From: Planoprotostelium fungivorum
Taxonomy: Eukaryota; Evosea; Variosea; Cavosteliida; Cavosteliaceae
Reading direction: 5' to 3'
DNA: 64,000 nucleotides
Assembly: GCA_003024175.1 (NCBI GenBank)
Contig: MDYQ01000133.1
Span: 1-64,000 of the forward strand
The position numbers and the translations under genes are program-made. The first letter of the stretch is position 1. Each line of letters opens with the position of its first letter. Under the pieces are notes generated by a model. It ran no database searches, had not been told where the DNA came from, and worked only from the letters and a program-made list of their open reading frames with translations. This document shows positions 10,634 through 42,857 of the stretch, in pieces.

Positions 10634-13600
10634 ATGATGCAGCCCTCGAACTTGCGTGGGGCTCTGAACGAGGTCTCGCTGAGATGTGTTCTTCTCGCAC
10701 TCTTTCTTTCGATCGGCTGTGAGGCTCAATCCGATCTAGCTCTGGTCTCTACGATGAAGGGAATCTGGTCCTCTCTAAACGGTGTGTTGCGTTTGTCCAG
10801 GGAGATCCCGTCTGAATGATTGAAGGGTCTTCACAATATTGGACCGGAAACAATGTGAGTCGACAGATCGATCATCCAATCTCAAGGCCAAACACAAACG
10901 ACAAGAACAAGATTTCGTTACGTCCGAATATTGTCTAACGTCCGACAGGTGTGCAACTCTACCGACTACAATGGAATCACATGTGACCGAACGAGCTCTT
11001 ATCCTACCTCCTTCGTCTTCAACGCGTTAAATTCTTCATCGATCAAGCTCACGGGTTCATTCCCTCCACAGATTGGTCTTCTGACCAATCTCACCCGTCT
11101 CGATCTGGGATCTAATCAATTGTCTGGATCCATCCTTCCATCCATCTGTGAGCTCTCATCCGTCTCATTCGATTCTAATGTGCACAGGTGATCTCACTGG
11201 ATTGACATACATCGATCTGAGCCGAAACTTATTCAATGGTTCCCTTCCCTCTTGCCTCGGTCAACTGTATCATCTCAAAAGTTTAATCTTGGTGATTCAC
11301 CTCTATCTCTCGCATCAATTTCACCATCTCCCGATCACCATGTGATCACTCTCAACTGATGCTCTCTCAGGATACGAATCGATTGAGTGGAAGTGTACCG
11401 AGATCCATAGCCAACCTCACTTCACTCTCTCAGTGCAATCTGGGCACTAATCCTTCTCTGTGCTTCCCTTGGAACGTGTCTTCCATCTGTGGCACTACAG
11501 TGAGTAACAAGTGTGCGTCGAGTGCATCGCTGGTAGCCACGATGAAGAGCATATGGACCACGCTGGGAGGTAAGAGTGTTCCATCCTCTCTCTTCTCACA
11601 GTCAACAGGACCGACACAGTACTGGAAGGGAAATCAGGTGAGGCATCACTTGAATTCCGATGTCTATTTTTGTCTCATCACACGATGGATGATGCATCGA
11701 TTTGTTTATGACTGATCGATGTGAATGTAGACTTGTAACCCTGCCGATTACATTGGAGTAACGTGTGATTCCACGGCAAGTTACCCAGTCTCTATCGTCT
11801 ACAACCCACAATCGGATACATCTCTCACTAAGCTCACGGGGAGATTATCTCCTCTCATTGGCAGCTTGAGTAACCTCACCAAGATCGATCTCGGAATCAA
11901 TCTGATCACTGGAATTATTCCATCTACCATCTGTGAGTCGATTCGATGTCAATCGTGACGATCATCGCGATATGAATCATCTGATCACATCGATGATCCA
12001 TCATCTGATCACATCGATCATCTGTCATCTGATCACATAAATGACGCATCGATACAATATAGAACCGAATTGAATTGACTCTTGGAAGGTAATCTCACCC
12101 AACTCACTTCCTTGGACTTGGGATTCAGTTCAATCACCGGTGGCCTACCCTCTTGCATGGGCACGTCCAACCTACAGATGGTCGATCTATTCTTCGGTGG
12201 CGTCAGCGCCAATAATTCTATCCTCGATGTCATCTGTGAGTCATCGTCGATGTACATCCATCTGATGTCATAGGTAATATGACTCTGTTGCAAACGATAG
12301 ATCTCAGCAAAACTTCTCTGTCTGGACCGTTTCCCTCTTGTATCACAAACTCTCTCGTCAATTTGGTTGGATTAAATCTGGGTAGAACGGCACTGAATGG
12401 ATCAATACCGGATTCCATCTGTGAGTGTCACATCACGATTTCAATCACATCGTCGATGTCGCATGCATCAGCCCTCGATGTGAATCTCATCGTTGATCGA
12501 GAGAAGGTAACTTGACTGGACTCGATTATCTCAATCTGGGAACGGCACAGTTCTCAGGTACCATACCCTCTTGTCTCGATCGATTGTCAAATTTGAACAG
12601 TCTATTCTTGGTGGGTTTATTTCCTCTTCACCTCTCTCACCTCTGAAGGATACAAATCAACTGAGCGGAAGTGTACCCAGATCCATAGCCAACCTCACTC
12701 GACTGTCTCAGTGCAATCTGGGCACTAATCCTTCTCTGTGCTTCCCTTGGAACGTGTCTTCCATCTGTGGCACTACAGTGAGTAACAAGTGTGCGTCGAG
12801 TGCATCGCTGGTAGCCACGATGAAGAGCATATGGACCACGCTGGGAGGTAAGAGTGTTCCATCCTCTCTCTTCTCACAGTCAACAGGACCATCACAGTAT
12901 TGGAGAGGAAATCAGGTGAGGAACTCTTCTCTCTCCATCACATCATCGATGTACGATCCATCCGTTGATCACCTTCAGATCTGCAATTCGACCGATTACA
13001 TCGGTGTCACGTGTGATCCTTCCTTCACTTATCCTGTCTCCATCTCCACCGGAGAATTCACTAAAACCATAACATTCAACGGAACCTTATCTCCTCTCAT
13101 CGGTGACCTCGTCAATCTAACTCGGCTGTCTTTGATTTCCTCATTCAATCGTTTCGGTTTGTACGGGAGCATCACTCCCTCCATCTGTGAGTGTATCGAT
13201 CTATCACACATGGATTGACCCAAAGTAGGCAATCTGACTCAGCTGTACGTCTTGGAATTGAGTGGAAATGGGTTGACGGGAGTCATTCCTGATTGCATCG
13301 GTACAGATCTGGTCCAATTGACTTCTCTCGTTCTGAATACCTCATCGCTGAACGGAACGATACCTGATAGCATCTGTGAGTCATAATGGATGATGTGAAT
13401 CTATAAGATGTTGATGAACGAGACAGGTAATCTGAATCAATTGTCTACGCTTGATCTTGGAGCGTCTCACCTGTCTGGATCGATACCCCCTTGCATCGTA
13501 AATCTTCCTCGTCTCCGAAATCTGTACCTCGTGAGATGTCCATTTCTTGTTTTTCGTGGCTGATGGAACTCAGGACGACAATCATCTGACGGGTAGTGTT

Positions 13601-15913
13601 TCCACCTTCAGTAATTCTCCCCTGGTAAACTGTAAATTGGATAATAATCCATCGCTGTGTTATCCTCTCGGTTGGTCTTCTATCTGCAGTGGTAGAACCA
13701 CAGACAGTTCCATCTGTCCCACGACGAAGATTCCCACCGGTACTATTTTGACACCAGCACAAGCAGAGGTGAGAGAGAAGGAGAGGAGGAGAATGACATG
13801 GGTCAGATCGTGTTGAACAACGGTTTGAGCGGTGACGTCTACATCGAGGTGAATTCTATCACGCGAAGGGAGATTGACGCGTTGTAGACGGCCAGTTTCG
13901 TGTCTGCAGTCATCAGTGCCGTTCTCAAGAACGCAACTTCCTTTTCATACAATCACCCGGAGGTATCCATCCGTGTGCAGACGTACGATACGTACGATGA
14001 TAGTATAGTGTACACTCAGATCACCAACAGCAGCATCTCCGTCACTCTTCCATCCTCTGTTACCACGTCACCCAAAGGTGTCTACATTTCAACGTGTAGA
14101 CATGATATCTTACCCCGACAGTATCTGTGGCTCTCACATCCATAGCCTACAATCCATTCTTGTCTATCTACAACGAGTCCATGTAAATACTTTCGTCTTC
14201 ATTCGATTTTCTCTACAACCATACAACGTGTTTCATTCAAATCTAACCGATCGATAGATACAGCACAGTGACGGGAGTCAGCTTATACGGTCAGAATGGA
14301 ACAGAGATCAACGTCAGAGACATCAAAGACACAATCAACATCACCATGGGTATCATCCAACACATCCCTTCAGAACACTGTGAGTTCATCTCCTATCTTA
14401 CAGGCACTGAAGAGGGACACAGATGCAGTGTGTCAGTATTGGAACGAGACGAGCGATCAATGGTCCAGAGAAGGACTGAGGCTGGTTGTAGATGACAACG
14501 TGACTGTGTGTCAGACGAGTCATCTCACCAATTTCTCCATCGGAGTACAAAAGATCGTAGCAAGGAGTGCCCCCGTTGTAGATGAATCGGCACCCGCGCC
14601 GAGAGAGGACGGCAAGAAGACGATGATCATCATCATCGTGGCCAGCTGTGCCGCAGGAGCTGTCATACTCATATTGATCGTGATGATCATCCTATATCGA
14701 CGTCGTAGTGCCATTAGGAAGGTGAGACGATCTTGATCACGATCATCATCACCATCATGTCATCGTGATGACGATCGAGTGATGAGATTGTACTGACACA
14801 TTCAGTTCGATATGAGAGGTGGCAACGAAGAATTAGAAGAGAAGGTAGAATGGATCGAGAAGGTTCACACCGGTGAAACGACCGTGTGGAAGGCTCTTCA
14901 CAACGGAACGAACACAGTCGCCGTAAAGAAGGTAGACAGAGATCTACGGAAACTGATAGGAGAAGCAACAAGATTGAAGGTGAGACACATACAGAGTCGA
15001 GAGAGAGTGACAAGTGATAGACATTGCATCATCCAAACATCGTTCTCTATCTGGGTCAGAACTCATCAGGTGAGAGGAGAGAAGAGAGAGGAGAGTGAAA
15101 GAGAGACAGAGAAGTGGATGATGACCGAGTGGATGAGTGAAGGAGATCTCTTCTCTTACTCTCTGCGTAACTCTGTTTCCCCTTTCATCTTTCAGATGTG
15201 AGGTTCAATCACCATCACTGATGATTGACCATGTCACAGAGGAAGAGACATATCCCAAGCGATGAGTTATGTGGCCGAACAGAATCTAGTCCACACGATG
15301 CTGACACCTCACCATGTGATCTACCTCCTTCTCTTCTGTCGTTGACTCGTACAGATTCTACTGCAAGAGACAGAGTTCACGATGGTGGCAAAGGTAGGCA
15401 GCTTCGGTAGCTGCGTTTCAGATGGAAGTCGATCGGATAAGAAGGAAGGCCACACGGTGAGATGTTGGCAGAGTTATTCAATAACACAGAGAGAATGTCA
15501 CATGCACAGCCACGTCTGACGCAGTACAGGCACCCGAAGTGATTGAGGATGGAATACAACGCACGAGTGCTGACGTGTGGAGTTTTGGACTGCTGCTGTC
15601 TTTCATCATCAGTGATGGAAAGAACAGTGAAAGTCAGGTCAGTGATGATGTTGATGATCGATGATGGAACGAAGGGTGACGATGAGGACAGGTGTATGGA
15701 CAGAGGAAGTCAAAGAAGAGAGTGTCGACTGTGAGAGCAGAGACAGAATGGGAGGCAACGATCAAGTCACTCGTTCGAGATTGCACGGACGTAAAAGTTG
15801 CCAACAGACCCACCTTCAAAGACATGGCGAAGAAGTTGATGAGAAAGGCAGAAGAGACGAGGAAGGAAAAGTGGATGGAAGACGAAGTCGATCATTATGG
15901 AATGCAAGAATAA
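10634..15913 (+). CDS. LRR receptor with GPS motif, TM and pseudokinase
   Basis: The start (MMQPSNLRGALNEV) is followed by a hydrophobic signal peptide. The ectodomain is a set of leucine-rich repeats, mostly one per exon, with introns falling after a recurring SIC motif. Near 14430-14540 lies a GPS-like sequence: CQYW, a later Trp, then SHLTNFSIG; HL/T is the known cleavage site in adhesion GPCRs. Compared with the four-Cys canonical form, GC is GL and the Cys before SHLT is replaced. One TM helix (about 14617-14700) precedes a kinase-like domain near 14812-15912. The VAVKK lysine and DVWSFG are kept. HRDLKPxN reads HTMLTPHHI and DFG reads SFG, so both catalytic Asp are missing: a pseudokinase. 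The 15.0-15.7 kb exon joins are by eye. AATAAA overlaps the stop. Confidence 0.82.
11371..11640. repeat. Internal exon duplication, copy A
   Basis: This 270-bp block matches 12649-12918 (offset 1278) with few differences. It encodes a final LRR (SGSVPRSIANLT), then NPSLCFPWNVSSICG, and the cap-like start of a second repeat array (SLVATMKSIWTTLGGKS). The receptor's ectodomain was therefore enlarged by duplicating a whole cap-plus-LRR module. Confidence 0.92.
11977..12046. repeat. 24-bp tandem repeat in LRR gene intron
   Basis: About 2.8 copies of a 24-bp unit beginning TCATCTGATCACATCGAT lie inside an intron of the LRR receptor gene. Confidence 0.85.
12649..12918. repeat. Internal exon duplication, copy B
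   Basis: Second copy of the block at 11371-11640. The high nucleotide identity points to a recent duplication or continuing gene conversion within the receptor gene. Confidence 0.92.
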
Positions 15914-21033: not shown

Positions 21034-21129
21034 GCTCAGATCCGGTTGAAGAGAGTAGAACAGATAAACGGTGAAAATAGTAGATTTATCGTCTCGGTTT
21101 ATAAACCAAGTCTGAAGTGATTGGTTGGC

Positions 21130-24100
21130 TCAAGAGGAGGATAGCTGATAGACATTCTCGAACTGTGATTGAATGTTGCGTATCTCATTCTGGTTCACTG
21201 GTTTCAGCCTCTGGCCCACGGCCGTCATCTTCATTCGCTCTTTGGGCGAGCCCAACGTGCTGATCTCTGTCACTCTCCGTCTCGAAATGAATTCTCACCA
21301 TGATTCGATGATTTCTGTCCACATCTCAGGTGATTCTGTTCTCGTCTGCAAAGAAGGTGAGACGTTCGGTTTGGGTTTCATTTGGTCCCTCACCTTTCTC
21401 TCGTTCATGACATCAGAGAAGACGATGCCGAAAGAGAATCTGTGGAATAGATCAGTGTGTGGAGGAGAGGATGTGTGCTCACATGTCTCCTTCTATGGTA
21501 GATCTGCCGGTCCTCTTGACTTCTGGTGCCTGATTCGTGTCAGATGATGTCATGATGCGATGATGATGATGGCATGCTGATGTGATGTGATGTCATGCGA
21601 TCTCGATAGACTCACGAGATACTTTTCCATGTAAGGGGGAATGTTAGCATGGCCATAGGCCGACAGCTTGACGTGATGTGAAGAGGTGACATACACCTTC
21701 TGTGGACATACTCTACCGTGGACGTGTCCGTTCTCGTGCAGATAACTCAGCCCCGCAGCGATCTCAGCCATTCTGTTTTCACATTCAATCATCACATCTC
21801 ATCCTCTTCACTCACATGTCGCGTATCTCTTCTTCCTTCTCTATCCTTCCACTCCTTAATACCTGCTATCGTTAGAAACACTATCTCTTTTGCATGAACG
21901 ACGAGACAACAGGGATGTTCTCACATCTGCAAGAGTGCCACCATCCATATAGTCCATCACCATACATGTCATCTCTGCCTCTCTGTACATCCCCAGACAC
22001 ATCAAGATGTTCGGATGATGCATGTCCTGCCTTCCTGTCACTCTCTTCTCATCTCATTCCATCTCATCTCACCTTCAGCATGTTTGCCTCTCTCTGCAGC
22101 TCTTTGCTTCGCTCTGCCTCTGCTGTCTTCTTCACTGCCACTTGTGTCGTTCCTGCCTTCTTGCCCACATACACAACTGTCTCTCTGCCTCTGCCCACTT
22201 GTCTCTCTATCTCTATCTCCTGTCCATCTCATCACACACTGGTCATCACACTCTGCACATGATGAGAGAGAAACTCACGTGGTACTCTGTCAGATCAAAG
22301 TCGGAGGAATAGTTCTTTGTTCTCCTGCGTCTGTTGACGAAAAGAGCGATGATGATTGACGCTGGGTCGAGGTCAGCATCGTGACGTCCATCAATAACGC
22401 CACGGTGATCAGCTTCATGATGATGACGAGCGATCGTCATCGTCATGAAGATTGCCGAAAAAGACTCACCGATGGCAATAGGGATGATGCCTAAGATGGC
22501 CAGCAGATACATCTTGTTCATTCCTCTTCCCTTCTCAGAGTTAATGATTCCCACGGTGAAGTTTGTGAGATGAGAGCACAGACACGTGATGCTGCTCTGT
22601 CCTCTCTCTGTGTCACACCCATCTCTCTTCCATCCTCTGCTCTCTTCTGCCCAGTACACACATCTCATCTCTGTCTTCTCTTCACTCTCTTTCTTCTCTC
22701 TTCTCTATCTCTCTCACCCTCTGTGACAGTGACGTTGACAGGTAGAGGTATAGTGATAGTGATGCGTTCGCTGGTGTTCGTCACGTTTGTGTAAGAGCCG
22801 TTGAGATAGAGAGTGAGACCGATGATGTCACCCACTCTGTTCGACTGATGAGTCTAATGACACGTCTCTCATCACAGCATCTCACGTGGTCACATTTTGA
22901 GTCTGAGGGAATAATTGTGTACTGCTGATGCGACTGAGGATGACCGTTGCTGTCGTGTTCCCTCCCGACAATAGATCTTGGATGATTGTAGATGGAATCG
23001 AAAAGTTGATGCCTGTTCCATTGATACTTCCTACTGTTTCATTCCCCTTCTGCATCTTCTATCAATCGTCTTTGCATTTCAAATAATTAATGAATTTGAA
23101 TTTCGCACGATAGATGGATGGAAAAGATCACCTGATCTACAACGGCAGCGTACACTGACACTCCCTCTCTGTTCGTCACCTCAAAGCTGTCGCTCGTCTT
23201 CAGTGCATTCTCTGCGATGCTCTCGATGGATGTGAAGATCTGAGACACTGACCGAGAGCCGTTCACTTGTATGGCCTGCACAGCATCCACAGGACTCGTG
23301 TAATTTACAAACTTGCTCGATGGGGGCTGATCATGCATCGCCAACGTCAACGAATAATACCCAGAAGGCACATCAGAAGGCACGAGAAGGTCTACCGAGA
23401 ATGTTCCTCCCTTCACGTTCATTCTAGTGATGTAAGATTTTGTTGGTTGATCAAGGAGAGAGAGTTGAGATGAGAAGCCCGCATTGCGACCTGTCACGTG
23501 TTGACTCATCTTCAACCGTCCCACTTGCTTCTTCTCACCTTCCACGTGGATGATGGAAGGTCTCACTTCCACAACAGTGATGACGGGTGATGGATAAAAG
23601 AAGGGGACGGCGATGGAACTGTTACAGACTTGTAGAGTGAGAGTGAGATTGCTGCCGACACCGGGAGGTATGAAGATAGTGGCATTCCACCTCAGCTGTT
23701 CATCGGTTGCATTTATGGGTGTGATGGAGACGATACTGGGTACACCTTGTATGTTGTTGACTGCAGAGCCATCGAGCTGCACCGTATTTCCATTTCGATT
23801 CGATGGGTAAAGAGCGTAGACGAATCCTCCGTCTGTCGTCAGAGCAGGATTGTATATCAAGGACGTCACGATGGGACTCCTCCACAGGATCTGTTCTGTT
23901 CCCCCAGTCACGTTCGTGTGGACCAGTTGTCCTTCGTTCGAGAGACGTATCGTATACTCCCCGTGGGTTCCATTAGGTGTGGAGGAAACACCGCAGGCAC
24001 GATTGGTAGACCACAGAGGAGAGCCTGTAGAGTTCTCCCACACGACGTTTCCCACTGCTCTTGTGAGAAGGAACAGAAGAAGAGTATCTATCAGACAGAA

Positions 24101-24456
24101 AGAAGAGAGATGCGCTCACAATCTTGAACGAAGAGTCTGTAGAGGGAGTCGGATGATACCATTCTGGAGGTGTTGTTTGGACGCCACCTCCAGAGACCAG
24201 GTGAAGAGAAGGCAACGATCTGTGGCCATCCCTCCGCTGTGAACTGAAAGCGGGTGAGAACTGAACATCCGAGGATGCAGCCATTTCCAATCACCTCCAT
24301 TTTCCATTGTCTGCTGATAGATATCAGAGGCACTTGGTTGTAGCTGTTGTTGAGAAGAACTGGATAACTGTTGTTCACCATAATGTACCCGGAATCGAAG
24401 AGTGCTATAGACGGGACGACTAGTAGTAGGAAGAAATACATCTGAGGCACCCTCAT
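21130..24456 (-). CDS. Bulb-lectin receptor with GPS motif and pseudokinase (copy 1)
   Basis: Signal peptide (MRVPQMYFFLLLVVPSIA), then a B-lectin (mannose-lectin type) domain: PLISISRQWKMEV, then NVVWENSTGSPLWSTN and IRLSNEGQLVHTN. Beta-rich IPT-like segments follow, then a GPS motif near 22560-22670 with all four Cys: CVYW, GC, TCLCSHLTNF. One TM helix (MYLLAILGIIPIAI, split by an intron) and a kinase-like domain complete it. The glycine-rich loop VGRGRETVVY, the VAVKK lysine and the REANML glutamate are kept. The catalytic loop reads VHGRVCPQKV and the DFG position reads SAYG, so catalysis is unlikely. The paralogue at 39.5 kb lies in opposite orientation. The exons near 21.2-21.6 kb were placed by comparing the two. 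Confidence 0.85.
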
Positions 24457-24737
24457 CACGATGTTGCTGTTGTCGTTGTCTCTTCTTGTCCTGTGAGGAA
24501 TTGTCTCCAACTGCGTTCGTGTCAAGTCGGGATGGGTCACAAACCGATGAAACTGGCCTCCTGAGGAGCAGCCAATTGAACCTCCACAAAAGAACCATTG
24601 ATGAAATCTGCTGTGTTTAGAATACTCCAATAATACATTGGTGAGTCTTATACAAGAGAGTCATCATCAGGAAATTGATGGGGTTTTTATCACTCGTGCC
24701 CTCTGTGGTCATGCAGGCTGAAGATATATTGATGAGT

Positions 24738-25548: not shown

Positions 25549-25625
25549 TCTTGAAATGGCCACGTGATGGTGTTTGTCGCATCCTTCCAGACAAATAAAA
25601 CACAAATCAATTCCATTTTCATCTT

Positions 25626-29446: not shown

Positions 29447-29553
29447 CCTGTGTCCTTCCGATTCGTGTCCCTCCGATAATGGGGTGAGCAGGGAAGAGAA
29501 GTAGGTCACGTGATTCTGACGTTCGTGTCATTCCACGAAACAAAATGATTTAT

Positions 29554-30150
29554 TCAAATCATTTTAGCGCCAAACTGAGACAGACCTGCAGCGACGATCA
29601 CGCTGAGACAAGAGAAGCTCTGCACCATCCAGACGAGAGAACGAGCGTAAGAGAGCTGCGGGTGACGTGATCAGTTGTGAATGGTGTCAGATGAGGATAC
29701 CTTCTCGTTTGTCGTGGTGATGTAAAAGAAGACGTAGAGGACACGTAAGAGAAGGTAGAGGCCTCCGAATGAGTTGAGATAGAAGGAATCGAAACGTGCG
29801 AGGTTGCCCAGGACCTAATCCGATTTAACATGAACAATCGTCGAAACCAGTGCTCACGATGGCGGCGATGAAGAGAGGGAGACCTTCGAATCCGTTCTGC
29901 GAGGCAGATTCGGCTTTGAATGCTCTATCTCTGATGTGAGGTGGAGGTCCCTTTGAAGATACGTAAGAAGATGTTGATAGCTGTGAGAGATCACCTTGTC
30001 CTTGTTGTTGTCCTTTGCGAAACTGCTTCTGGGTAGGACATTGGTGTAATACTTGCCCAGCAGACCGACCGAATAGATGTGAGGTATGATGCACAGAACC
30101 CATGCAGCGGGGATAGAGAGGATGGAGAGGTTTCGAGAGAAGTATTCCAT
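29554..30150 (-). CDS. MAPEG-family membrane protein
   Basis: Four exons give about 146 residues: MEYFSRNLSILSIPAAWVLC (first helix), then RAFKAESASQNGFEGLPLF, the family's Asn/Glu signature, then YLNSFGGLYLLLRVLYVFFY and YARSLVWMVQSFSCLSVIV. MAPEG proteins are four-helix membrane proteins; some are glutathione transferases or eicosanoid synthases, but this fungal/protist-type branch is uncharacterised as far as I know. AATAAA overlaps the stop codon. The gene lies just upstream of the SLC44-like gene on the same strand. Confidence 0.82.
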
Positions 30151-30441
30151 GTCTGGTTGGATGTGTTGTGAGCGCAACGGTAATCTGTCTCCCAATTTTC
30201 GCTGACTTTCTTGTGGTCACCCCTTACCACATGAACGGCAGAATTCTGCAGATTTGAGCACGAGATCATAAGTGGTACATAGATGCGTCCTACGTCTGAT
30301 CGTATGGATCTGCTGTCCACAGACAGACGGGGATGGCGATGCGATTAGAAGAAGGAAGCATCGATCGCTCGATCTGAGAGCTCCTTCATCTATTCACAAT
30401 GGTTTCGTGGAATCTCGACCAATCTTGCCTTCCCGAGGTCA

Positions 30442-30845
30442 TCATTTGTTGGCTTCTGATCCTTTCTGTTGTTTGTGCTCTGTGTTCGCATCTTCCTTCT
30501 GTACAGACTCTTGTACCTCTTTCAGAGGTTGATGTGGCCTGGGATTGTTCCTCTTCAAATATTGTGCCAGCCATTCTGAAGGACTGATCTGAAGTGGAGA
30601 TGAATATCACATCACGGATCAAATCGTCTTCACACCGTCTGACTATTCTGCGCATTGTCTCTGTGCGATCTCATCGAGCTGTCGTGTGATTGCACCCATC
30701 GTAATAGGTCCTCTAGAGCGGGCAATAGCACTGGATAGACATTCTGTTCGAGGTAAGCCTGCTGCTCGTTCATCGATGTAATTCTAAAATTAGTTTCGCG
30801 AAATTGAAATGGCGATGTGATTTGGTTTTTCTGGTTGGTGTCCAT
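30442..30845 (-). CDS. Dpy-30 motif protein
   Basis: Two exons, joined across a short intron near 30584-30628, give a protein of about 119 residues. It contains the Dpy-30 dimerisation helices: AYLEQNVYPVLLPALEDLLR, then after the intron ISPSEWLAQYLKRNNPR. This fits the pattern YLxxxVxPxLLxxL...PxxxLAxYLxxNN. Such motifs occur in the COMPASS histone H3K4 methyltransferase subunit DPY30 and in axonemal and adenylate-kinase proteins. The C-terminal tail is charged (KEVQESVQKEDANTEHKQQK). A second in-frame Met just before EQQAYLEQ could be the true start. Confidence 0.8.
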
Positions 30846-30949
30846 GCATTTGGATCACTAATTTTTTCGTCGTGCATATTCCAGTAGTCGGGAGAGAAGT
30901 GATCCATTTTCAATGCACCATTTGACCACCAACCGGAAAAACCGAATCA
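30818..30949. repeat. Imperfect 23-bp inverted repeat at Dpy-30 gene start
   Basis: The arm at 30818-30840 and the reverse complement of 30927-30949 match in 21 of 23 positions around the core GGTTTTTC-GGTTGGTG. The inner flanks are also partly complementary (GCATTTGGATC versus GATCCATTTTCAATGC). The left arm lies inside the first codons of the Dpy-30 gene. Confidence 0.7.
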
Positions 30950-31685
30950 TGTGTTTGAGAGTCATATCAATTTCCTCGTGACGCATGAGAGAACGAAGAT
31001 GAAGGAGTTTGACTTCTTGTTTGATCGATCCCTTGAGTGCTTGACGTGTTCAATCTCATGATGCACATGGTCTTAAAATGCATCGGACTCATCAGACCGT
31101 TGTGACAGCGATTCTTCTATGAATGAGAACGATGAGAGAGGACGGTCGGATGATTTTATGTTCGAATCACGGAGGATGATGCGAACGATGATCTAGGGTG
31201 AAGCGTTTACTGTGGTTCAACTCTTAGCCAATAGGTCATCCGAAGATAATCTTCTGGCACACAGACATCCACGCGTTGGCATCAGAGTGTCCTCCCCATT
31301 TCGCCCGATCCTTGACACACGCTCTGACCACTTCCCCACCAATCCTTCCTCCTCCCATACACAACCTCTCATCGTCAGCCAATCGACACGGAGAGCCACA
31401 CCATCAGACCTCGTTGACTTAGACTTCGGTGGAAAGTGACAGGCCAGGATGAAAAGCGAGGAACGAGCGAATTCAATTCCGAGGAAGCCAAAAGTTCCCT
31501 GCTCTGTGTCTGCTCAAATCTTCGACAACCAGCTCTGAGTCAGTTGCAGGTGCTCACACCGCTTAGAACATGACGACCTAACACATGAACAGGGCAGCGT
31601 ATGTCATATTTCTACCTTGGTAAATTTGGAGCCAAGCACGTAGGAAGAGAAACCGCCTGATCGAATAACAACCAACATCATCCCA
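30846..31685. other. Divergent intergenic region, 840 bp
   Basis: This lies between the Dpy-30 gene (minus) and the lysine fusion gene (plus), so it holds two promoters. Open frames at about 31212-31440 on both strands have no recognisable motif. I support no further gene. Confidence 0.45.
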
Positions 31686-34600
31686 ATGAGCTCTTCACCA
31701 GAGGTACTGACATCTGATGTTTCCTCACACCATCATTTCCATCACTGACACCCACCGTTTAGTTAGCCGCCTTTTCTGGCGCCAAATCCCTTCACTTTTG
31801 GATCCGTGCAGAGACCAAAGAGGGAGAGAAGAGAGTGCCCATCGTGCCGTCTGACGTGTCTCTCCTCATCTCCTCTGGTCATACCGTCACAGTCGAATCA
31901 TGCCAGAACCGCTGTTTCCCTGACAAGCAGTATGAGAATGCCGGAGCCACCCTCGTCACCTCAGGTAGGAGATCGATTGGTTCATACATAGTCATTGATA
32001 TGATGTGTAGGATCTTGGAGAACAGCTCCCTCTGAGGCCATCATCGTGGGTCTCAAAGAACTTCCAGACGAGAAGTTTCCCCTCATGCACACTCACATCT
32101 ACTTCGCCAACGCTTACAAGAAGCAGCCCGGTTGGGAAGAGCTACTTGGCAGGTACATGCTCGTCATTCCATCTTCCATCGACCGTCATACTCAATGCAT
32201 GGACAGGTTTCACCGTGGAGGCGGAGTCGTCTTAGACATGGAATACCTCACCGACGAGCTCGGTAGAAGAGTCGCCGCCTTTGGAAACCCTGCGGGTTAC
32301 ATCGGTCTGGCGGCCGGTGTTCTGACATGGTGCCATCAGAGAGAAGCACATCAGGCGATGACAAACATCCCCGCCTATCGTGATTTCTCTTCTCTGGGTG
32401 AGAACATCATCTCATACCGAAGCATTTCCTAATCATCCTCCATCTCAATCTTCATCATTCATCCTCGAACGACCGACACTCATCCTCTATAGGATCTAGA
32501 GTCGAATCCGCTCTCCGCACTGCCATCGCAGACAGTGGCAAGCGCCCCAGAGTCTTAGTCATCGGCCCCAACGGTCGAGTTGGAAGCGGGGCGACACGTC
32601 TGGCTCACGAGCTCGGTTTAGAGTGTGCTGGCTGGGATATCACAAAAACAGCCAGAGGAGGTCCCTTCTTAGAGATGTTGGATTTCGACATCGTCATCAA
32701 CGCCATCTGGTTGACGCGGGATGTGAGACCCTTCTTAACGCGAGAGCTGTTGGAAGCCAATCCTCTCAGGAGGTGATATACATACCTCTCACGATACGTC
32801 TCTATATATGTAGAATAACATTTTATTCACTTTTATTCAGGATGAGCGTATTGGTGGACGTCAGCTGTGACCCACACAATCCCTTCCACCCTTTCCCCAT
32901 CTACAACAAGGCAACGACTCTCTCCCGCCCAGTCTCCCGTGCCATCAACGGAGACAACCCTCTAGACATCATTGCAGTGGACAACTTGTGTTCCATCATC
33001 CCTCACCAGTGCAGCACTCAGTTCTCAGCCAATTTGGTGAAGCACCTCTTGGATCGTGAACACTCGGCCAACGTGTGGAATCGGTGAATGGAATGTTTCG
33101 AGGAGATCTCTGATGGCGCGTTGTAGATGCAGAAATATCTTCGATGGCATGGTCAAGTCGATTCGCAGCCGTCTGGAATCTGCGCCGCAAGATTTGCCGC
33201 CCGTATTGTCTCTTCCCACGGACTTCCCAAGGAGAGACGAGAGAGCACCGGCTTTGTCTGTGAAGTCTTTACCTCTACCACCTTCCGTCACCGGTACGTC
33301 ACTTTTATTCTGTTTTATTTCACTTGATTGGGACGTATCGGTATCATGGTCTTTCCCTTTTCATCTCGTATATGTCCATCTACAACAGTGTAGATGATGT
33401 GACTCACCGTAACAGAATTCATCCGAAGTTTCTCCGAGAGGTGGAACGCTGGAGCCGAGTTGGTGGTGGCAGCTGTTTGGGACATCCTTCTCCATCGTTA
33501 CACTGGAGAGGAAGAGCTATCCATCGGCATCGGTCGTTATGAAGAGGACAACCGATCCACCTATCAGAAACTACGCCTCACTCTCTCCAACCAAACTTCC
33601 TTCACCGAATTTTTCCTCGAGGTGAGTCCACTCTTTTCTGTTTTAAAGTTTGCAAAATCGATCTTTTCATTTTATTCTTCGATTGATCTACGTAGGTTGC
33701 CATGGCGATCAGGAGATCACTGAAGAGGAATGGTTCTCGGGGTGTGGCCAGTTACGTGAGAGAAGAAGGGAAGCATCTTCAGAGTCTGTTCCTCTCTTCA
33801 TCTTCACCTCTGTCTCTCTCCTCTCAGCTGGACCTGTCCTTCGCCGCTCAGAATCACGACTTGTCGCTGTTCCTAGAAAACGGTGAGATTCCCGGGAAAT
33901 TTTGGGGTGATGGGTTGTAGATAGCGTGGTCCACGTGTTGTACAGGCCGGATCTATTCGCAGATCTGCGAGCGACTGAAACCTGCGAGCAAGTCTCCTTC
34001 TTGCTCCAACAGATCGTCACCGACAGCAAGGTGAGAATTCTCCTGGTGGTACGAGTCACGTGACCGTTGTAGATGAGCATCGGAAAATTATCCCTCGTCA
34101 CCCCCCACGCCAGCCGCGTGCTGCCTGATCCTAAGACATCATTGGACTTGTCGTGGCTTGGATCCATCCACTCTATCTTCCACAAGAATGCACTGTCTCA
34201 CCCACACAAGACAGCCGCCGTCCACAGGTAACTATCATCTACAATTCTTCATTTAAATGAAACTCTCCAGAAACGAGATCGTCACCTACGGAGAATTAGA
34301 CTCGATGACGTCCAAGCTGGCGAATCATCTATTATCCGGCGGTCTACAACGAGAGGATGCAGTTTTCATCTACGGATCTCGCAATCTGGCCATGGTGGTG
34401 GCTGTGATGGGAATCTTGAAGGCGGGAGGAGCTGTTTCACTGATGGATCCCATCTATCCTCCAGAGAGAATCACAAACTGTCTCAGAGTCGCAAAACCAA
34501 AGGGTTGGATCAGCATCCAGGTGAGAATCTCTTCTCTCGTCGGAACATCTCGCCCTTGTCATCTTTTTATTCTCTGAATCATTTTTGTGTTGTAGATCGA

Positions 34601-37600
34601 TCGTTCTGTGAATGAGTTGTGGAGACGAGATCGTACATTTTCACATGATGGCGAGTTGTAGATTGAACGAGGGACAGGGTGCTGGAGAGATTCCCAGGGA
34701 AGTGAAGGAGTTCATGCCCACCGTGGGCTGTGATCTCGTTGTAGATCTACCCCTCCCTTCTCAATTCAACGAGAATCCCTCCCTCCGTGACGCCAGCGAC
34801 GTCGATCCAGAGGTAACTCAATCGTATATGAATTTCCCGCCAAAATCATTTTCCCGCCAAAACTGACTGGTACAGATCCAAGTCGACAAACACGATACTG
34901 CCGTCGTCACTTTCACCTCTGGCTCCACAGGTCTTCCAAAGGGTAATTCACACCAAAGAATTTTCCCTCAATTTTCTCACACACTACAGGTGTACTCGGC
35001 AGACACGGTCCACTCACGGCCTTCTATCCTTGGATACAGAAGACTTTCAACTTGAACGGAGACGACAGAGTGTCGATGTGCTCTGGCATCTCACACGATC
35101 CACTACAACGAGACATTTTCACTCCTCTCTATCTGGGTGCTGAGATCCACGTACCGGACGCCGATGACATCGGTAACCCCGGGCAACTGGCAAAGTGAAT
35201 TTGGCGGGAGAATTTGGCGGGAAAACTGACTCCCTGTAGGTGGATGAGAGAGCACGAGATCACCGTTACACACTTGACCCCTGCCATGGGACAATTATTA
35301 TCCGATACAGATGGAGCAGATACCATGGTAACAACCCTCAAGTTAGCCCTCTTTGTCGGTGACAAATTGACCAAGAGAGACGTAACTCGATTACGCTCGG
35401 TGGCACCTCAGGTGAGAGGACGAGTCCGTAGCGTACGTACTGAAGCGTAACTCAGGTGACCGCCGTCAACATGTACGGCTCCACGGAGTCTCAGAGATCA
35501 GTTACGTATTACGTCGTACCCCCCAATGAAATTTTGGCGGGAATGAAAGAGATCCTACCCGTTGGTGTTGGCATGAAGGACGTACAATTCTTAATTCTCA
35601 ACGACGGCAGCCGAGTTGGTGTGGGAGAGGTGATTTCCTGCCATTTTTTCCCGCCAAAAACTCATATCGTACAGGTCGGTGAGATCTACATGCGATCGGC
35701 GCATCTGGCCAGGTGACTCGGATCTGTGAATGCGACGGAGACTGAATGAAATAGGGGCTACAAGGGATTAGACGAAGTGAATCGACAGAAATTCATCGTG
35801 AATCCCTTCACTGGGATAGATGAAGATCGGTTCTACAGAACCGGAGATTTCGGAAGATATTATCCGGATGGACAGGGTGACGTGGTGGGAAGATTGGACA
35901 ACCAGGTGACTTTTATCATCATTCGATTCTTACATCTGCGATTTATGCGAATTTATTTTGTTTTATTCTTTCGACTCATTCCTGGGAACAGGTCAAGATC
36001 CGTGGATTCCGCATTGAATTGGGAGAGATCAACACTGCGCTAGCCTCTCACCCTCAAGTCAAGGAGAACGTACCGTACGTAAGAGAGGACACCCCGGACG
36101 ACAAGAAGATCGTCGCTTATGTCATTCCCAAAGATATCGCGAATCCTCCAAAGATATCAGAACTCCGCGAGCACGTTGGGTCCAAGTTGCCTCACTACAT
36201 GGTACGTTTCATTTCTTTGAGACGTTGTAGATTGACGGAATCAGGTTCCCGCCAATTTCGTATTCATGTCGAGCATTCCGCTCACTCCCAACGGAAAGAT
36301 CGCGTTCGATCAGCTGCCACCTCCATCTACAACGAGCCAGACCGAGAAGGAAGCGGATGACAAGGTCGTTTTCCCTGAAAAAGTTTTGGCCAAGAGGGCT
36401 CGCAGGACTACTTTCTCTAGTGACGACCAAGTGAGATTTATTTCAAAGTATTTGGGATTTATTTCGAAATATTTGAGACTTTGGTTGGCGTGGAAAGATA
36501 CTGAAGGAAACAGGTGACCATCGCTGCAGTTTGGCAAGATGTCTTAGGTCTGACGTCATTCGGCAAAGAAGACAACTTCTTCACATTGGGTGGTCACTCT
36601 CTATTGGCCACACGATGTGTCGCCAAGCTATCGAAGGTGATGATTCCTTTTATTCTATTTTATTCTTCTCCTCTGACCCATCTCACTCAACTCGTGCAGT
36701 CGTTCGGTACAAAAATCCCCCTCAGTCTGCTCTTGGAAAATCCAAACGTTCCCGCGCTTTCCCTGGCCATACGTAAGTACGTAACCGGACAGGAAGTAAA
36801 CGCGGAGAACTTCCGGCCCGACGTATCTCTGGACGCCGGTATCGTTCCCAGGGAAGAAAAGAGTACAAGAACGGACCGTTACTTCCTCAGTGGAGCCACC
36901 GGTTTTCTCGGAGTTTTCATCCTCAGAGATCTCTTACGCATCGAGAATGTCACCGTACACGTGCTGGTGAGTCCCAATATCGATTTCCCGCCGGATCGAA
37001 AGATTCTCCCGCCAAAACGGTCCCAATTGAATCTCCCCGCCAGGTGAGAGCTACCTCCAAGATCGACGGAAGGCAGAGGATCAAGCACGCTATGAAACTC
37101 CACAGAGTTTGGGAAGACAGTTACGAACCCAGGATCGTCCCTGTACCGGGAGACCTCTCTCAGCCTCTTTTGGGACTCACTCGAACGGATTTTGAGACTC
37201 TGGCGGGAGAAGTGGACATGGTCATCCACTGTGCGGCGCACGTTCATTGGTTACTACCTTATTCACAATTGAAACCTGCCAATGTACTCGGTACACAAGA
37301 GGTGATTTATCTATATGTCCATAGCATTGCGTTCTATTCCTCACAAATTCAACACGATTGAACTTTGAGCGATAACCGAGAGATAATCGATCTTCTATAC
37401 CACATCACTTCAATTCACCTGCACACTCGTTTCGTCTCATTTTATTTCATTTTATTCTTACATCATCCTACAGGTCATCCGTCTGGCCGGCACTACCCAT
37501 ACGAAGCCCATCCACCACGTATCTACAACGAGCGTATTTGAATCCGACTATTTCGACACCAATCGAGGAGAAATCAGGGAAGATGTGGACATCTCCTCTC

Positions 37601-38666
37601 ACTACAACGGGTTAAGAGGAGGTTACGCTCAGTCCAAATGGGCCGCCGAGCTCCTCATGTCGCAGGCCCGCGATCGCGGATTCAAGGTCAACGTGTATCG
37701 ACCGGCTTATATATCGGGAGACTGTGGTAATGGCGTGTGGACTACAGACGATTTCTTGTGCAGAGTCATCAGGGGATGTATTCAGGTGAAACTCTCTTCA
37801 TAGGATGAAACACATGTGGCATCGCACACCTGCACCATCGTATATACATATTCATATCAAATAAAATAGAATGAAATAGATCATTCGTTAGGTAGAATAT
37901 AGAAGATAAGAGAGGTCGTTCATGAGAGATTGAAACTGACGGGTTGTAGATGGGAGCTTACCCTACCTTGGATGACAGTGGTTTAGACATATCCCCAGTC
38001 GATTTCGTATCAGGAGCAATCGTACAGTTATCTCGATCTACAACGCTCGAATCCACCACCTACCACCTGACTAACTCACACATGACAACGTGAGCCTAGA
38101 GATGAGAAATTTCACTGAAACCTCGCAGGTTCAGACAGTTCTTCTCAGTCGCTGGAGAATATGGTTATGACCTCAAGGAGTTGAACTACAACGATTGGAG
38201 AGCCAGATTATTGGAGGTGATCTATTCTATTTTATTCTCTTCTGAAAGACAAAAAGCTGCAAGAGAAGGACGACGGAAATGCGTTGCAAGTCGTGTCCAC
38301 CATTTTCACGGAGAATTACAATACTCAGTTGAAGAACCCAACCATGTCACGTGATCACACCGAGAGAGACCTCTCTGCAACAGGTGATCATCATCTACAT
38401 CACCTGCATCATCGCTCGTCTCATCATCTCTACCATCTCCCCACCGTGATGCAACATCATCGCATATCACCACCATTGACTCAATGTCTGCAGGACCACA
38501 CAATCGAGAGATAAGAGAACTCATTCCGCTCTACCTCTCTTACCTCCTCCGATCAGGATTCCTCCCCAAGCCACAGAGAGAGACGATTCTCTTCCAGGAA
38601 CAAGTGACTCGGCTGGGCTCTCTCGATCTCGTCACTCGCACGAACCGTTCTCACAATCAGTCTTGA
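31686..38666 (+). CDS. LYS1-LYS2 fusion: saccharopine dehydrogenase and alpha-aminoadipate reductase
   Basis: N-terminal half: NAD saccharopine dehydrogenase (lysine-forming), with [54 protein letters not shown], the nucleotide-binding GPNGRVGSG and TARGGPF. Its last helix ([16 protein letters not shown]) crosses a 43-nt intron (33084-33126) and runs straight into LYS2. LYS2 parts: condensation-like domain (to about 34 kb); adenylation domain ([29 protein letters not shown]); carrier domain with phosphopantetheine Ser ([13 protein letters not shown], about 36580); NADPH reductase ([25 protein letters not shown]). Together they reduce alpha-aminoadipate to its semialdehyde and convert saccharopine to lysine. 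About 30 introns; the start exon encodes MSSSPE. If the 43-nt intron were not spliced, a TGA would end LYS1, and LYS2 could use ATG 33113. Confidence 0.88.
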
Positions 38667-38811
38667 AGAACATGATCTCATCCATCATCAATAAAAGATC
38701 ATGTGAAAAGAAAAACAGCAATGGAATCACATGTTTCGCGAAGAGTGAAAACCAAACCAGGAGGGTAAATTGCTGACATTCAATACAGTAGAATCACACG
38801 ACGTTATAGAA
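38667..38811. terminator. 3' end of lysine fusion gene
   Basis: An AATAAA signal lies about 25 nt after the stop codon of the lysine gene, at about 38690. The repeat-derived fragment begins soon after. Confidence 0.5.
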
Positions 38812-39071
38812 GACAGCTTGACGTGATGTGAAGAGGTGACATACACCTTCTGTGGACATATTCTACCGTGAACGTGTCCGTTCTCGTGCAGATAACTCAG
38901 CCCCGCAGCGATCTCAGTCATCCTTCCATCTCGTCAGTGGCATCGGTCATCTACAACTCACATTTCACAAATGTCTTCTTCCTCTAATTTTCCTCTCTTC
39001 ATCACCTTCTCAACATCAGAATGATTCGGCATCATGATGAGAGATGAATGAAGATGACGATCAACACATCG
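38812..39071 (-). pseudogene. Inverted 260-bp fragment of receptor pseudokinase
   Basis: The reverse complement of this block matches 42062-42321 of the downstream receptor over its whole 260 bp with few differences. It covers the exon encoding MKRGKLEEEDICEM, the following intron, and the exon encoding LSYLHENGHVHGRICPQKV. It has no promoter-side exons and no continuation on the minus strand. It is therefore a dead piece, and it forms an inverted repeat around the intact receptor's body. Confidence 0.88.
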
Positions 39072-39089
39072 CATATCTCTATCTCTCAG

Positions 39090-39359: not shown

Positions 39360-39545
39360 TGAAAACGTATATTTCATTCATACGTATGGAGTTGCTGTTT
39401 GAGTTTTGTTGGTGCTCCAGAGAAACGTCACCGAGTTTCATTGAAACGAGAACCACCGCCCAAATGTCAATACGCCGGTGCAGTGACAAGATCGGCTGGA
39501 AACTTCAGAAGCCCGCAGGACAAGAGAGACAAGGATAGCAGCTGC

Positions 39546-42500
39546 ATGAGGACGTCTCAGCTGTACTGGTTCTTACTGTTAGTGGCACCGTCCATAGCTG
39601 TCTCTCTCTTCTCTTCTGGCTATACCTCTGTGACCAATGCAAACTCTGAGGCTCTCAACACTAACGACAGAATACCTCTGATATCCGCGAATGGGCAGTG
39701 GAAGTTAGAGGTGAAGCAGAAATCCAGCGGATCATAAGGGTCGTATCACACAAACCCAGCGAATCCTCTTTCTCACCTCACTGAATTGCAGTTCGCGACG
39801 GACAGGTGGCCTCAGATAGTTCATTACCTTACACCTGAGGTGTGGAGGTGGCGTCCTTTGAACAGATCCCAGGTGATAGACACAAACAACTATTTCAAGA
39901 TCTCCGTCCAGAATGGTAAGAGAGTGTTCGTCAATTTTCTCTCAACCGAGCAGATGGTAACGTGGTGTGGTATAATTCCTCTAACTCGCCTCTGTGGTCA
40001 ACTAATCATGCCTGTGGAGCTTCAGATACCCCGAACATAAGCAGAGACTATGCGATATACCTCTCCAACACAGGTCAGCTGGTCCACAATAACATGACAC
40101 AAGGACCTGACTACAATCGGACCTTGTGGACAGGTCCCATTCTGACTTCCATCACGATCGATCCGAACCTCACGACCGATGGCGGAGTCGTCTATGCTCT
40201 TTACAACTACAATCAGTCAGCCATTGCGGTGCAAATACAGTACTCTTCTTCCAGTTTCGTTCAAGGACAACCCAGCGTCACCTCCACCAGCACATCTGCA
40301 TATGCAGACGGTCTACAACAGAATTCCACCATCACTATTCCTCCCGGTGTTGGCACCAATCTGACTCTCATCTTGACCACCTGCAACAATTCCTTCACTT
40401 TTCCATTCTCTTATCCATCACCCAACATCACCTTCGTAGAATCTAATCCTTCCTTTGTTCGAGTCAAAGGTGAAGAAGATGATTGACTGATGCATGTAGA
40501 TCATTTACCATCTCACAGGTCGCAATGCGGGTGTCTCTTCAAATCCATCTGAGATCACGCTCTCCGTGGTTGGAACTGGTATATCCATCACCAGCACAAA
40601 CGTGACGGGTGGAACCTTCTCTGTGGACCTCCCTGTACCTCTTAACGTGTCCTCTGGAATCCTGACAGTGATGATGACGAATGGACAAGGCAGCCTGAAG
40701 AGAAATCTCTACTACACGAGTCCTGTGGAGTCTGTGCAGGCCATACAAGTGAACGGCTCTCAGTCAGTGTCTCAGATCTTCACATCCATCGAGAGCATCG
40801 CAGAGAATGCACTGAAGACGAGCGACAGCTTTGAGGTGACGAACAGAGAAGGAGTGTCGGTGTACGCTGCCGTTGTAGATCAGGTGACCTTTTCGTCTCG
40901 TCTGTCGGCATCCTAGAAATCGTATTTCACAATGAAATCAATACAAATGAAATCCGAGATAAGTTGATGGAGAATACAGAAGGGAAATGGAACGGTGGGA
41001 GGTTTGAACGGGACAGGCACATATTTTATTATTCCATCTACAACCATCCGAGATCTGTTGACTTCAGGAGAGAACACGACAGTGACGGTCATCCTCAGTC
41101 ACATCACCACCTTACGATTGAACGCTTCGAGCGAAGACGTGACCATGTGAGATGATGAGAGACGTGTCATGTCGCTGATGAGTCGGACAGAGTGGGTGAC
41201 CTCATCGGTCTCAGTCTCTATCTCAACGGCTCCCATGCCATCGTGACAAACACCAGCGAACGCATCACCATCACTCTACCTCTACCTGTCAACGTCACTG
41301 TCGCAGACGGTGAGAGAGAAAGAGAAGAGAGAGAAGTAGAGAGTGAAGAGAAGACAGAGATGAGATGTGTGTACTGGGCAGAAGAGAGCAGAGGCTGGAA
41401 GAGAGATGGGTGTGACACAGAGAGAGGACAGAGCAGCATCACATGTCTGTGCTCTCATCTCACAAACTTTACGATCGGTGTGGTCAAGCTGGGGCCGGAG
41501 GAACCACCGCAGACGGGTAAGAGTGGTCTTCGGTTGGTTGCCCTCATCGTCATCGTTCCAGTCGTCTTAGGTGAGATTCTCTTTATGTGATGATCGAGAT
41601 GATGATCGAGATGATGATGGATGATGATCGTGATGATGACAGTGATTGTGGCCATCGCTGTGATCGTAGTGAAGAGAGGAAGGAAGAAAGACATCCTCAC
41701 TGAATTCCACCTCCAATCATCCAACGTGAGTTCATCACTTTCTCCATCACCAAACACACGAAAATAATCTTTCAACCCATCTTTACATTCTCCGTAGGAC
41801 ATCGAAATCGAGGGGGAAGTCGGAAGAGGAAAACAGAGTGTCGTCTACACTGGAAAGAAATCAGGCACGACCGCGATTGCCATCAAGAAAGTGGAAGGAA
41901 GAGCTAGATCAGAGAGCTTGATGAGAGAAGCCATCGGCCTGAAGGAGCTGCATCATCCGAACATCTTGATGTGTCTGGGAGTGTACAGAGAGGCAGAGAT
42001 GACGTGTCTCGTTGTAGATTACATGGATGGTGGTACCCTGGCTGATGTGAGTCCATTCAGTCGATGTGTTGATCATCATCTTCATTCATCTCTCATCATG
42101 ATGCCAAATCATTCTGATGTTGAGAAGGTGATGAAGAGAGGAAAATTAGAGGAAGAAGACATTTGTGAAATGTGAGTTGTAGATGACCGATGCCACTGAC
42201 GAGATGGAAGGATGACTGAGATCGCTGCGGGGCTGAGTTATCTGCACGAGAACGGACACGTTCACGGTAGAATATGTCCACAGAAGGTGTATGTCACCTC
42301 TTCACATCACGTCAAGCTGTCAGCCTACGGAAGTGAAAGTCTAGACTACATTCCATCGTACATGGAAAGATACCTCGTGAGTCAGAATGCATAAAGATAG
42401 CACCACAAACATCACCATCATCATCAGCATCTCATACCTGACACGAATCAGGCACCAGAAGTCAAAAAGACCGGCAGATCTACCATAGAAGGAGACATGT

Positions 42501-42857
42501 GAGCACACATCCTCTCCTCCACAACGCTGATCTATTCCACAGATTCTCTTTCGGTATCGTCTTCTCTGACATCAAGAACGAGAGGAAGGTGAGAAGTGAC
42601 AGAAGCAGAGACATGAGAATCTCTTAAGAGGACGTCTGACACCTTCCACAGCTGAAAAGAGAACAACCCGATGTGTGGAAAGAGGTCATCGATTCATGGT
42701 GAGAAGAGAGAAGCGAGATAGAGGATGACACGACGGCAGCACGTCGGTGTCGGCGAAAGATCGGATGAAGATGATGATCGTCGGCCAAAAGTTGAGACCC
42801 GTGAGGGAGCACGAGATCTACGTCACACAAGAGGACGAAGGATCTTACCAAGCGTAA
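39546..42857 (+). CDS. Bulb-lectin receptor with GPS motif and pseudokinase (copy 2)
   Basis: Signal peptide (MRTSQLYWFLLLVAPSIAV); B-lectin domain (PLISANGQWKLEV, NVVWYNSSNSPLWSTN, IYLSNTGQLVHNN); beta-rich IPT-like region; GPS motif near 41362-41480 (CVYW, GC, TCLCSHLTNF); one TM helix (LVALIVIVPVVL plus IVAIAVIVV); kinase-like domain from about 41800. Kept: glycine loop VGRGKQSVVY, AIKK lysine, APEV and FSFG. Lost: the catalytic loop reads VHGRICPQKV, with Asp replaced by Arg, Lys by Cys and Asn by Lys, and DFG reads AYG. The tail (RMKMMIVGQKLRPV...) ends in YQA. The protein is probably at the cell surface, sensing glycans and signalling by docking rather than phosphotransfer. N-glycosylation sequons are abundant. 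Confidence 0.87.

What the first reader, a model, noticed from the sequence alone, without database searches (positions are those of the whole stretch)
10634..42857. Receptor family joining a GPS autoproteolysis motif to a pseudokinase
Three receptors in the window (10.6-15.9, 21.1-24.5, 39.5-42.9 kb) share signal peptide, large ectodomain, a GPS motif (SHLTNF preceded by CxYW...W...), one TM helix and a kinase-like domain. In known biology (adhesion GPCRs, polycystin-1) GPS sits before multi-pass TM domains and allows cleavage at HL/T. Here it sits before a single TM and a kinase fold, with ectodomains of LRR or bulb-lectin type like plant receptor kinases. That would be a tethered-agonist-like or shedding mechanism on a receptor-kinase chassis. 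I know of no described example, but cannot search.
Basis: partly seen in the sequence, partly recalled or inferred. Interest (0 to 1): 0.9.

Follow-up and report, generated by a model that had tools for sequence, protein, structure and literature searches.

The report
Self-cleaving-type receptors with dead kinases
Three neighbouring genes of an unidentified eukaryote encode surface receptors that put the self-cutting motif known from animal adhesion receptors directly in front of a single membrane helix and an apparently inactive kinase, a combination I did not find described.

Summary
I built spliced models of three receptors: R1 (+, 10634-15913, 28 exons, 1238 aa), R2 (-, 24441-21130, 16 exons, 810 aa), R3 (+, 39546-42857, 15 exons, 823 aa). 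Each has a hydrophobic leader, a glycosylation-rich ectodomain, a GPS motif above Pfam's cut-off (E 4.1e-8, 9.8e-11, 6.9e-11), one TM helix and a kinase domain. GPS and TM start share one exon in 3 of 3, so the refuting splice pattern is absent. The cleavage triplet HL|T is intact in 3 of 3. All three kinases keep the beta3 Lys but lack the HRD and DFG Asp: pseudokinases. A three-sequence profile hits adhesion-GPCR GAIN domains in 19 of 20 PDB matches, but finds nothing once the GPS is cut off, and AlphaFold was uninformative: GPS certain, GAIN fold likely. R2/R3 are under purifying selection. Most likely a GPS-cleaved sensor ectodomain held on a single-pass pseudokinase co-receptor; cleavage and signalling are inferred. 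Ten searches of an open-licence library showed me no GPS-TM-kinase protein; automatic databases may list one.

The parts
10634..15913 (+). R1: LRR-GPS-TM-pseudokinase receptor, 28 exons, 1238 aa
   Evidence: complete spliced ORF, all introns GT-AG; Pfam hits
10634..13768 (+). R1 leader and leucine-rich repeat region
   Evidence: LRR_8 E 1.3e-27, 7 stretches; hydrophobic leader residues 11-29
14428..14541 (+). R1 GPS motif, residues 869-906; SHL|TNF at 14518-14535
   Evidence: PF01825 E 4.1e-8; motif scan
14626..14682 (+). R1 single transmembrane helix (best hydropathy window, residues 935-953), same exon as GPS
   Evidence: hydropathy 3.17; exon 14423-14721
14806..15913 (+). R1 pseudokinase domain (exons 22-28)
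   Evidence: PK_Tyr_Ser-Thr E 2e-28; HRD aligned to HTM and DFG to SFG against CSK
21130..24441 (-). R2: lectin-like-GPS-TM-pseudokinase receptor, 16 exons, 810 aa
   Evidence: complete spliced ORF; start position
22552..22665 (-). R2 GPS motif, residues 479-516; SHLTNF at 22558-22575
   Evidence: PF01825 E 9.8e-11
22279..22506 (-). R2 TM helix and juxtamembrane (TM begins in the GPS exon; intron 22362-22469)
   Evidence: hydropathy 2.93, residues 532-550; exon map
21130..22216 (-). R2 pseudokinase exons
   Evidence: Pkinase E 1.7e-30; HRD to HGR, DFG to AYG against 4csv
39546..42857 (+). R3: lectin-like-GPS-TM-pseudokinase receptor, 15 exons, 823 aa
   Evidence: complete spliced ORF
41363..41476 (+). 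R3 GPS motif, residues 488-525; SHLTNF at 41453-41470
   Evidence: PF01825 E 6.9e-11
41543..41725 (+). R3 TM helix and juxtamembrane (TM begins in the GPS exon; intron 41571-41642)
   Evidence: hydropathy 3.68, residues 548-566; exon map
41798..42857 (+). R3 pseudokinase exons
   Evidence: PK_Tyr_Ser-Thr E 8.6e-30; same HGR/AYG residues as R2
40519..41570 (+). R3 candidate GAIN region, upstream of and including the GPS (roughly residues 336-527)
   Evidence: three-sequence profile hits aGPCR GAIN domains, ADGRG1 over profile positions 70-188; no hit without the GPS
41310..41357 (+). R3 intron of 48 nt just before the GPS, stop-free and in frame, so unspliced DNA reads through as a charged insert; the R2 counterpart is 47 nt and has an in-frame stop

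Best explanation
R1-R3 are single-pass cell-surface receptors whose juxtamembrane extracellular part is a GPS-bearing, probably GAIN-type, domain. Shown by sequence: leader, sensor ectodomain (LRR in R1, bulb-lectin-like in R2/R3), GPS with HL|T, one TM, pseudokinase. Inferred: the protein cuts itself at HL|T during maturation; the large sensor fragment stays on the cell non-covalently, as in adhesion GPCRs; binding of a ligand or of a neighbouring or prey surface, perhaps with force, loosens or releases it, leaving a short stub (TNFTIGV or similar plus a linker of 13 to 26 residues), the TM and the pseudokinase. The pseudokinase does not phosphorylate but changes its pairing with an active kinase or adaptor. 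The confidence given is for the whole chain; I put the anatomy at about 0.95, competence for cleavage at about 0.75 and pseudokinase-as-co-receptor signalling at about 0.5.
For: Pfam GPS above cut-off in 3 of 3. GPS and TM start on one exon in 3 of 3; the intron just before the GPS exon is shared by all three at the same alignment column and phase. 14 of 14 R3 introns have an R2 partner of the same phase within 3 columns, and 4 of 12 R1 introns in the aligned part have an R3 partner (random mean 0.65, P 0.0023). Profile of the three GAIN/GPS regions: 19 of 20 PDB hits at E up to 10 are adhesion GPCRs, best ADGRG1 E 1.4e-5 over positions 70-188; 6 of the 19 best stretches begin before position 140, the rest cover little more than the GPS. 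R1 is 27% identical to R3 in this region, yet SHLTNF, the first GPS Cys, YW and the next Trp are invariant. R1 has lost the second GPS Cys and the second Cys of CxC and kept the other two; this fits loss of one of the two known disulfides (PMC13197933, section 7 read) if the pairing that I recall is right. R2-R3 dN/dS (NG86): all 0.28/0.75, kinase 0.20/0.80, GPS 0.03/0.30. HRD and DFG Asp missing and beta3 Lys kept in 3 of 3.
Against: No transcript or protein data; the models are mine. Pfam's GAIN model did not appear at E up to 1. The 150 or so residues before the GPS, alone, match no PDB chain at E up to 10. AlphaFold on a contiguous stretch gave mean pLDDT 45; its top Foldseek hit was CD97 (8ikj), but at E 0.032 with rmsd 11, and 0 of 594 matches reached E 0.001. 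R1 has lost two GPS cysteines, so its cleavage may be impaired. In R2-R3 the stretch between the first GAIN block and the GPS is under weak constraint (dN 0.19, dS 0.31) and the linker and TM are only 25% identical. The R2/R3 likeness in residues 336-392 looks like recent gene conversion (dS 0.08 against 1.0-1.3 upstream), so there the two are not independent witnesses.
Confidence: 0.55

Rival explanations
1. The GPS/GAIN domain is kept as a folded juxtamembrane spacer or maturation element; cleavage occurs or not but has no switching role, and signalling is ordinary ligand-induced clustering of the pseudokinase with an active partner.
For: Some adhesion GPCR GAIN domains were seen uncleaved (PMC13197933 section 7); R1 lost two GPS Cys; no 7TM to accept a tethered agonist.
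Against: HL|T intact in 3 of 3 although R1 is 27% identical to R3 in the region; GPS dN/dS about 0.10 in R2-R3.
Confidence: 0.25
2. The point is shedding: cleavage releases the LRR or lectin ectodomain as a soluble lectin or decoy, and the pseudokinase stub is turned over.
For: Cleavage motif plus lectin/LRR ectodomains; the GPS is followed by a short linker and the TM.
Against: The pseudokinase is under purifying selection (dN 0.20, dS 0.80), so it is not a mere stub; in the cleaved GAIN structures listed in PMC13197933 section 7 the last strand stays bound.
Confidence: 0.12
3. Artefact: separate genes, pseudogenes or wrong splicing join a GPS protein to a kinase.
For: Gene models are computational; a 260-bp kinase fragment 99.2% identical to R3 lies inverted at 38812-39071, so the locus does shuffle pieces.
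Against: Same order in three paralogues, complete ORFs, GPS and TM start on one exon, introns of only 84, 62 and 72 nt between the TM part and the first kinase exon, shared intron positions, dN/dS below 1 in R2-R3.
Confidence: 0.05

Closest known systems
Adhesion GPCRs (GAIN/GPS)
   Same: Canonical GPS with HL|T right before the first TM; large sensor ectodomain; profile matches to ADGRG1, ADGRF1, ADGRE5, ADGRG3, ADGRG6 and others
   Different: One TM instead of seven; pseudokinase instead of G-protein coupling
Polycystin-1 / REJ proteins
   Same: GPS before the membrane part; ascidian s-Themis relatives have GPS with 5 or 11 TMs (PMC9265791, passage)
   Different: No REJ, LH2 or PKD-channel match in Pfam at E up to 1, one TM. 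That sea-urchin REJ1 has a GPS and one TM is recalled; my search did not confirm it
Plant LRR and lectin receptor kinases, some of them pseudokinases (recalled)
   Same: LRR or bulb-lectin-like ectodomain, one TM, kinase fold
   Different: GPS present; best PDB kinase matches of R1 and R2 are tyrosine kinases
Dictyostelium TKL receptor kinases
   Same: Leader, ectodomain, one TM, kinase; nine such in the kinome paper (PMC1420674, passages, section 13)
   Different: The word GPS does not occur in that paper's main text
GPCR TKL/K (7TM-kinase proteins) of oomycetes, amoebozoans, choanoflagellates
   Same: Receptor-kinase fusions in protists (PMC12716839, passages)
   Different: Seven TM helices; in the passages I saw no GPS-single-TM-kinase

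Membership tests
GPS motif family (PF01825) | Profile match above curated cut-off | tested here: met
   34.0, 42.4, 42.9 bits against 22.5
GPS motif family (PF01825) | HL|T/S cleavage triplet | tested here: met
   SHLTNF in 3 of 3
GPS motif family (PF01825) | Four Cys forming two disulfides | tested here: inconclusive
   4 of 4 Cys in R2 and R3; 2 of 4 in R1; bonds themselves not testable
GAIN domain | Sequence match beyond the GPS | tested here: inconclusive
   ADGRG1 alignment spans profile 70-188; no hit without the GPS; no Pfam GAIN match
GAIN domain | Subdomain A helices and subdomain B beta-sandwich | tested here: inconclusive
   partial model all-beta but mean pLDDT 45; best Foldseek match CD97, not significant
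GAIN domain | Autoproteolysis | not testable with these tools
   needs protein
Adhesion GPCR | 7TM domain | tested here: not met
   one TM in each; no 7TM family in the Pfam scan
Polycystin-1 family | REJ, LH2 and multi-pass TM | tested here: not met
Active protein kinase | beta3 Lys | tested here: met
   AVKK or AIKK in 3 of 3
Active protein kinase | HRD Asp and DFG Asp | tested here: not met
   HTM/SFG in R1, HGR/AYG in R2 and R3; inactive by the K72/D166/D184 rule described in PMC1420674 section 13
Plant receptor-like kinase | RLK/Pelle-type kinase | tested here: inconclusive
   best PDB chains are CSK, Lck and the Src/Abl ancestor for R1 and R2 (60 of 1232 shown); R3 not searched; no tree built
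B_lectin (PF01453) | Match above cut-off | tested here: not met
   14.8 and 20.5 bits against 32.4; a two-sequence profile does reach bulb-type lectins in PDB

The most novel reading that the evidence does not exclude
An autoproteolytic GAIN switch was coupled to kinase-type single-pass receptors: removal of the cleaved LRR or lectin fragment unmasks the membrane stub and thereby changes the pairing of a pseudokinase with an active kinase, a receptor class that does with kinases what adhesion GPCRs do with G proteins.
Probability: 0.3. Interest if true: 0.85.

Novelty: new variant of a known kind. Interest (0 to 1): 0.68.

Why it matters
GAIN/GPS is known mainly as the front end of 7TM adhesion receptors and polycystins. 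A 2025 survey holds that GAIN and the aGPCR 7TM were joined in stem holozoans, while GAIN occurs in other genes elsewhere (PMC12716839, section 11 part 1), and a survey of amoebozoan GPCRs found no GAIN domain in their family 2 receptors (PMC10445921, passage; relevant here only if the source is an amoebozoan, which I have not shown). A GPS on a single-pass pseudokinase would show what such a module does without a 7TM bundle, and makes a simple test bed for whether cleavage itself, force or fragment loss carries the signal.

Tried and rejected
Species: not identified. No genome is held for the window; tRNA and Rfam scans were empty. The amoebozoan look (short GTGAG..CAG introns, gene content) is an impression from recall, so I claim no taxon.

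Relatives elsewhere: not searched (search for related loci and the collection scans were not used, because the collections on hand are prokaryotic or viral). I therefore have three sequences and no tree. GAIN region without GPS: no hit. AlphaFold: two jobs, mean pLDDT 45 and 35; Foldseek was run on the first only, CD97 first but not significant. IPT/TIG-like repeats between lectin and GAIN in R2/R3 were suspected by eye; Pfam gave no match, so they are not claimed.

Disfavoured: separate genes or a splice artefact; chance motif.

Print: ten searches of an open-licence library only; one search found no paper, the others gave lists. Most papers I saw only as listings; passages or sections were seen. 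In what I saw there was no GPS-TM-kinase protein. The key GAIN paper (Arac 2012) and the paper recalled as the Protostelium genome are not held.

Full report
The window is eukaryotic DNA with many short introns. Because no tool here predicts such genes, I wrote a small coding/splice model, listed its exons and curated the three receptors by hand, using the R2-R3 similarity and the splice pattern GTGAG...CAG. All three give complete reading frames with GT-AG introns: R1 1238 aa in 28 exons, R2 810 aa in 16, R3 823 aa in 15 (R1, R2, R3). There is no transcript evidence.

GPS (PF01825) is above its cut-off in 3 of 3. The best kinase family scores E 2e-28 (R1), 1.7e-30 (R2) and 8.6e-30 (R3). R1 has seven LRR_8 stretches. 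B_lectin is below cut-off in R2 and R3. A profile of the two lectin regions matches 20 PDB chains at E up to 1, of which 19 carry names of lectins, agglutinins, lectin-like bacteriocins or bulb-type antifungal proteins; the best whole-chain E is 5e-7, but it sums three individually weak stretches. Hydropathy gives one leader and one TM per protein, and the N-glycosylation sequons lie almost wholly before the TM: 30 of 32, 23 of 24, 22 of 22. Basic residues follow the TM, as expected for a cytoplasmic side.

GPS and the start of the TM share one exon in 3 of 3; in R2 and R3 an intron of 108 and 72 nt falls within the TM, and introns of 84, 62 and 72 nt precede the first kinase exon of R1, R2 and R3. 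The intron before the GPS exon sits at the same column and phase in all three. All 14 R3 introns have an R2 partner within 3 columns; 4 of 12 R1 introns have an R3 partner, where random placement gives 0.65 on average (P 0.0023, on an alignment that begins at R1 residue 721).

Is it GAIN? A profile of the three regions finds 20 PDB chains at E up to 10, of which 19 are adhesion GPCRs and one an aldolase. The best is ADGRG1 at E 1.4e-5, aligned over 119 profile positions and so into the strands before the GPS; 6 of the 19 begin before position 140, the others cover little more than the GPS. Against this, the same profile cut before the GPS finds none, Pfam's GAIN model does not appear, and AlphaFold on a contiguous piece was poor (mean pLDDT 45), its best Foldseek match being CD97 at a non-significant E of 0.032. 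I call the GPS certain and the GAIN fold likely.

Is it cleavable? The triplet HL|T is present in 3 of 3. R1 is 27% identical to R3 in this region, so the conservation of SHLTNF, the first Cys, YW and the later Trp is not recent copying. R1 keeps two of the four GPS cysteines. The review PMC13197933 (section 7) describes two conserved disulfides anchored next to CxCxHL|T; the two Cys lost in R1 would be one such pair if the pairing I recall (first-third, second-fourth) is right. Cleavage in R1 is therefore less sure than in R2 and R3.

The kinases. Aligned to a reconstructed Src/Abl ancestor (4csv), R2 reads HGR for HRD and AYG for DFG; R3 has the same residues there. R1 aligned to CSK reads HTM for HRD and SFG for DFG. 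The beta3 Lys is kept in 3 of 3. By the Lys/Asp/Asp rule described in the Dictyostelium kinome paper (section 13) all three are predicted inactive. The best solved matches of R1 (60 of 1232 shown) and R2 are tyrosine kinases, though PDB is biased towards them; R3 was not searched and I built no tree.

Selection and history. R2 and R3 have dN 0.28 and dS 0.75 overall, 0.20 and 0.80 in the kinase, 0.03 and 0.30 in the GPS, 0.19 and 0.31 in the stretch just before the GPS; the linker and TM are 25% identical and dS could not be computed there (Nei-Gojobori). Residues 336-392 have dS 0.08 against 1.0-1.3 in the lectin and following region, which points to gene conversion. So R2 and R3 look like functional genes, but in that block they are not independent.

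Mechanism. What the sequence shows ends at the anatomy. The reading I think most likely is a cleaved, non-covalently held sensor on a single-pass pseudokinase co-receptor. A tethered agonist in the 7TM sense has no obvious receiver here; after cleavage the stub would be TNFTIGV or similar, a linker of 26 (R1), 13 (R2) or 20 (R3) residues up to the best hydropathy window, and the TM. Release or loosening of the ectodomain could change dimer partners; a pseudokinase would then act through an active kinase or adaptor. Shedding, or a merely structural GAIN, remain open.

Known or new. [quoted passage not shown] In ten searches of an open-licence library, mostly seen as listings, I saw no protein with GPS, one TM and a kinase (calls under Tried and rejected). 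Automatic domain databases may well list the combination; I could not query them. Hence a new variant of a known kind.

Noticed in passing
38812-39071: Inverted 260-bp copy of the R3 kinase region (42062-42321), 99.2% identical, just upstream of R3: a recent fragment duplication.
   Followed up: partly
43349-47245 and 49900-54503: Duplication in four main pieces at about 90-96% identity; the 50-54 kb copy carries hybrid histidine-kinase-like coding sequence, judged by eye.
   Followed up: partly
52038-53386: A 674-bp tandem copy, 98.7% identical, on either side of the window's single N at 52712: possibly a scaffold-joining artefact.
   Followed up: no
31601-39000: An AlaDh_PNT_N protein (saccharopine-dehydrogenase-like by recall) followed on the same strand by an AMP-binding/PP-binding/NAD_binding_4 protein (aminoadipate-reductase-like by recall): a possible lysine-pathway pair (automatic models).
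   Followed up: partly
48595-49785: 396-aa open frame with 93-bp tandem units that look like ankyrin repeats by eye.
   Followed up: no
2109-4506: HECT-domain gene, Pfam E 4.5e-32.
   Followed up: no
24700-30965: Minus-strand automatic model, probably several genes, whose first part has a MAPEG match, E 5.4e-8.
   Followed up: no
41310-41357: 48-nt, in-frame, stop-free intron before the R3 GPS made of GAGAGAAGA-like repeats; if retained it would add a highly charged insert next to the GPS.
   Followed up: partly
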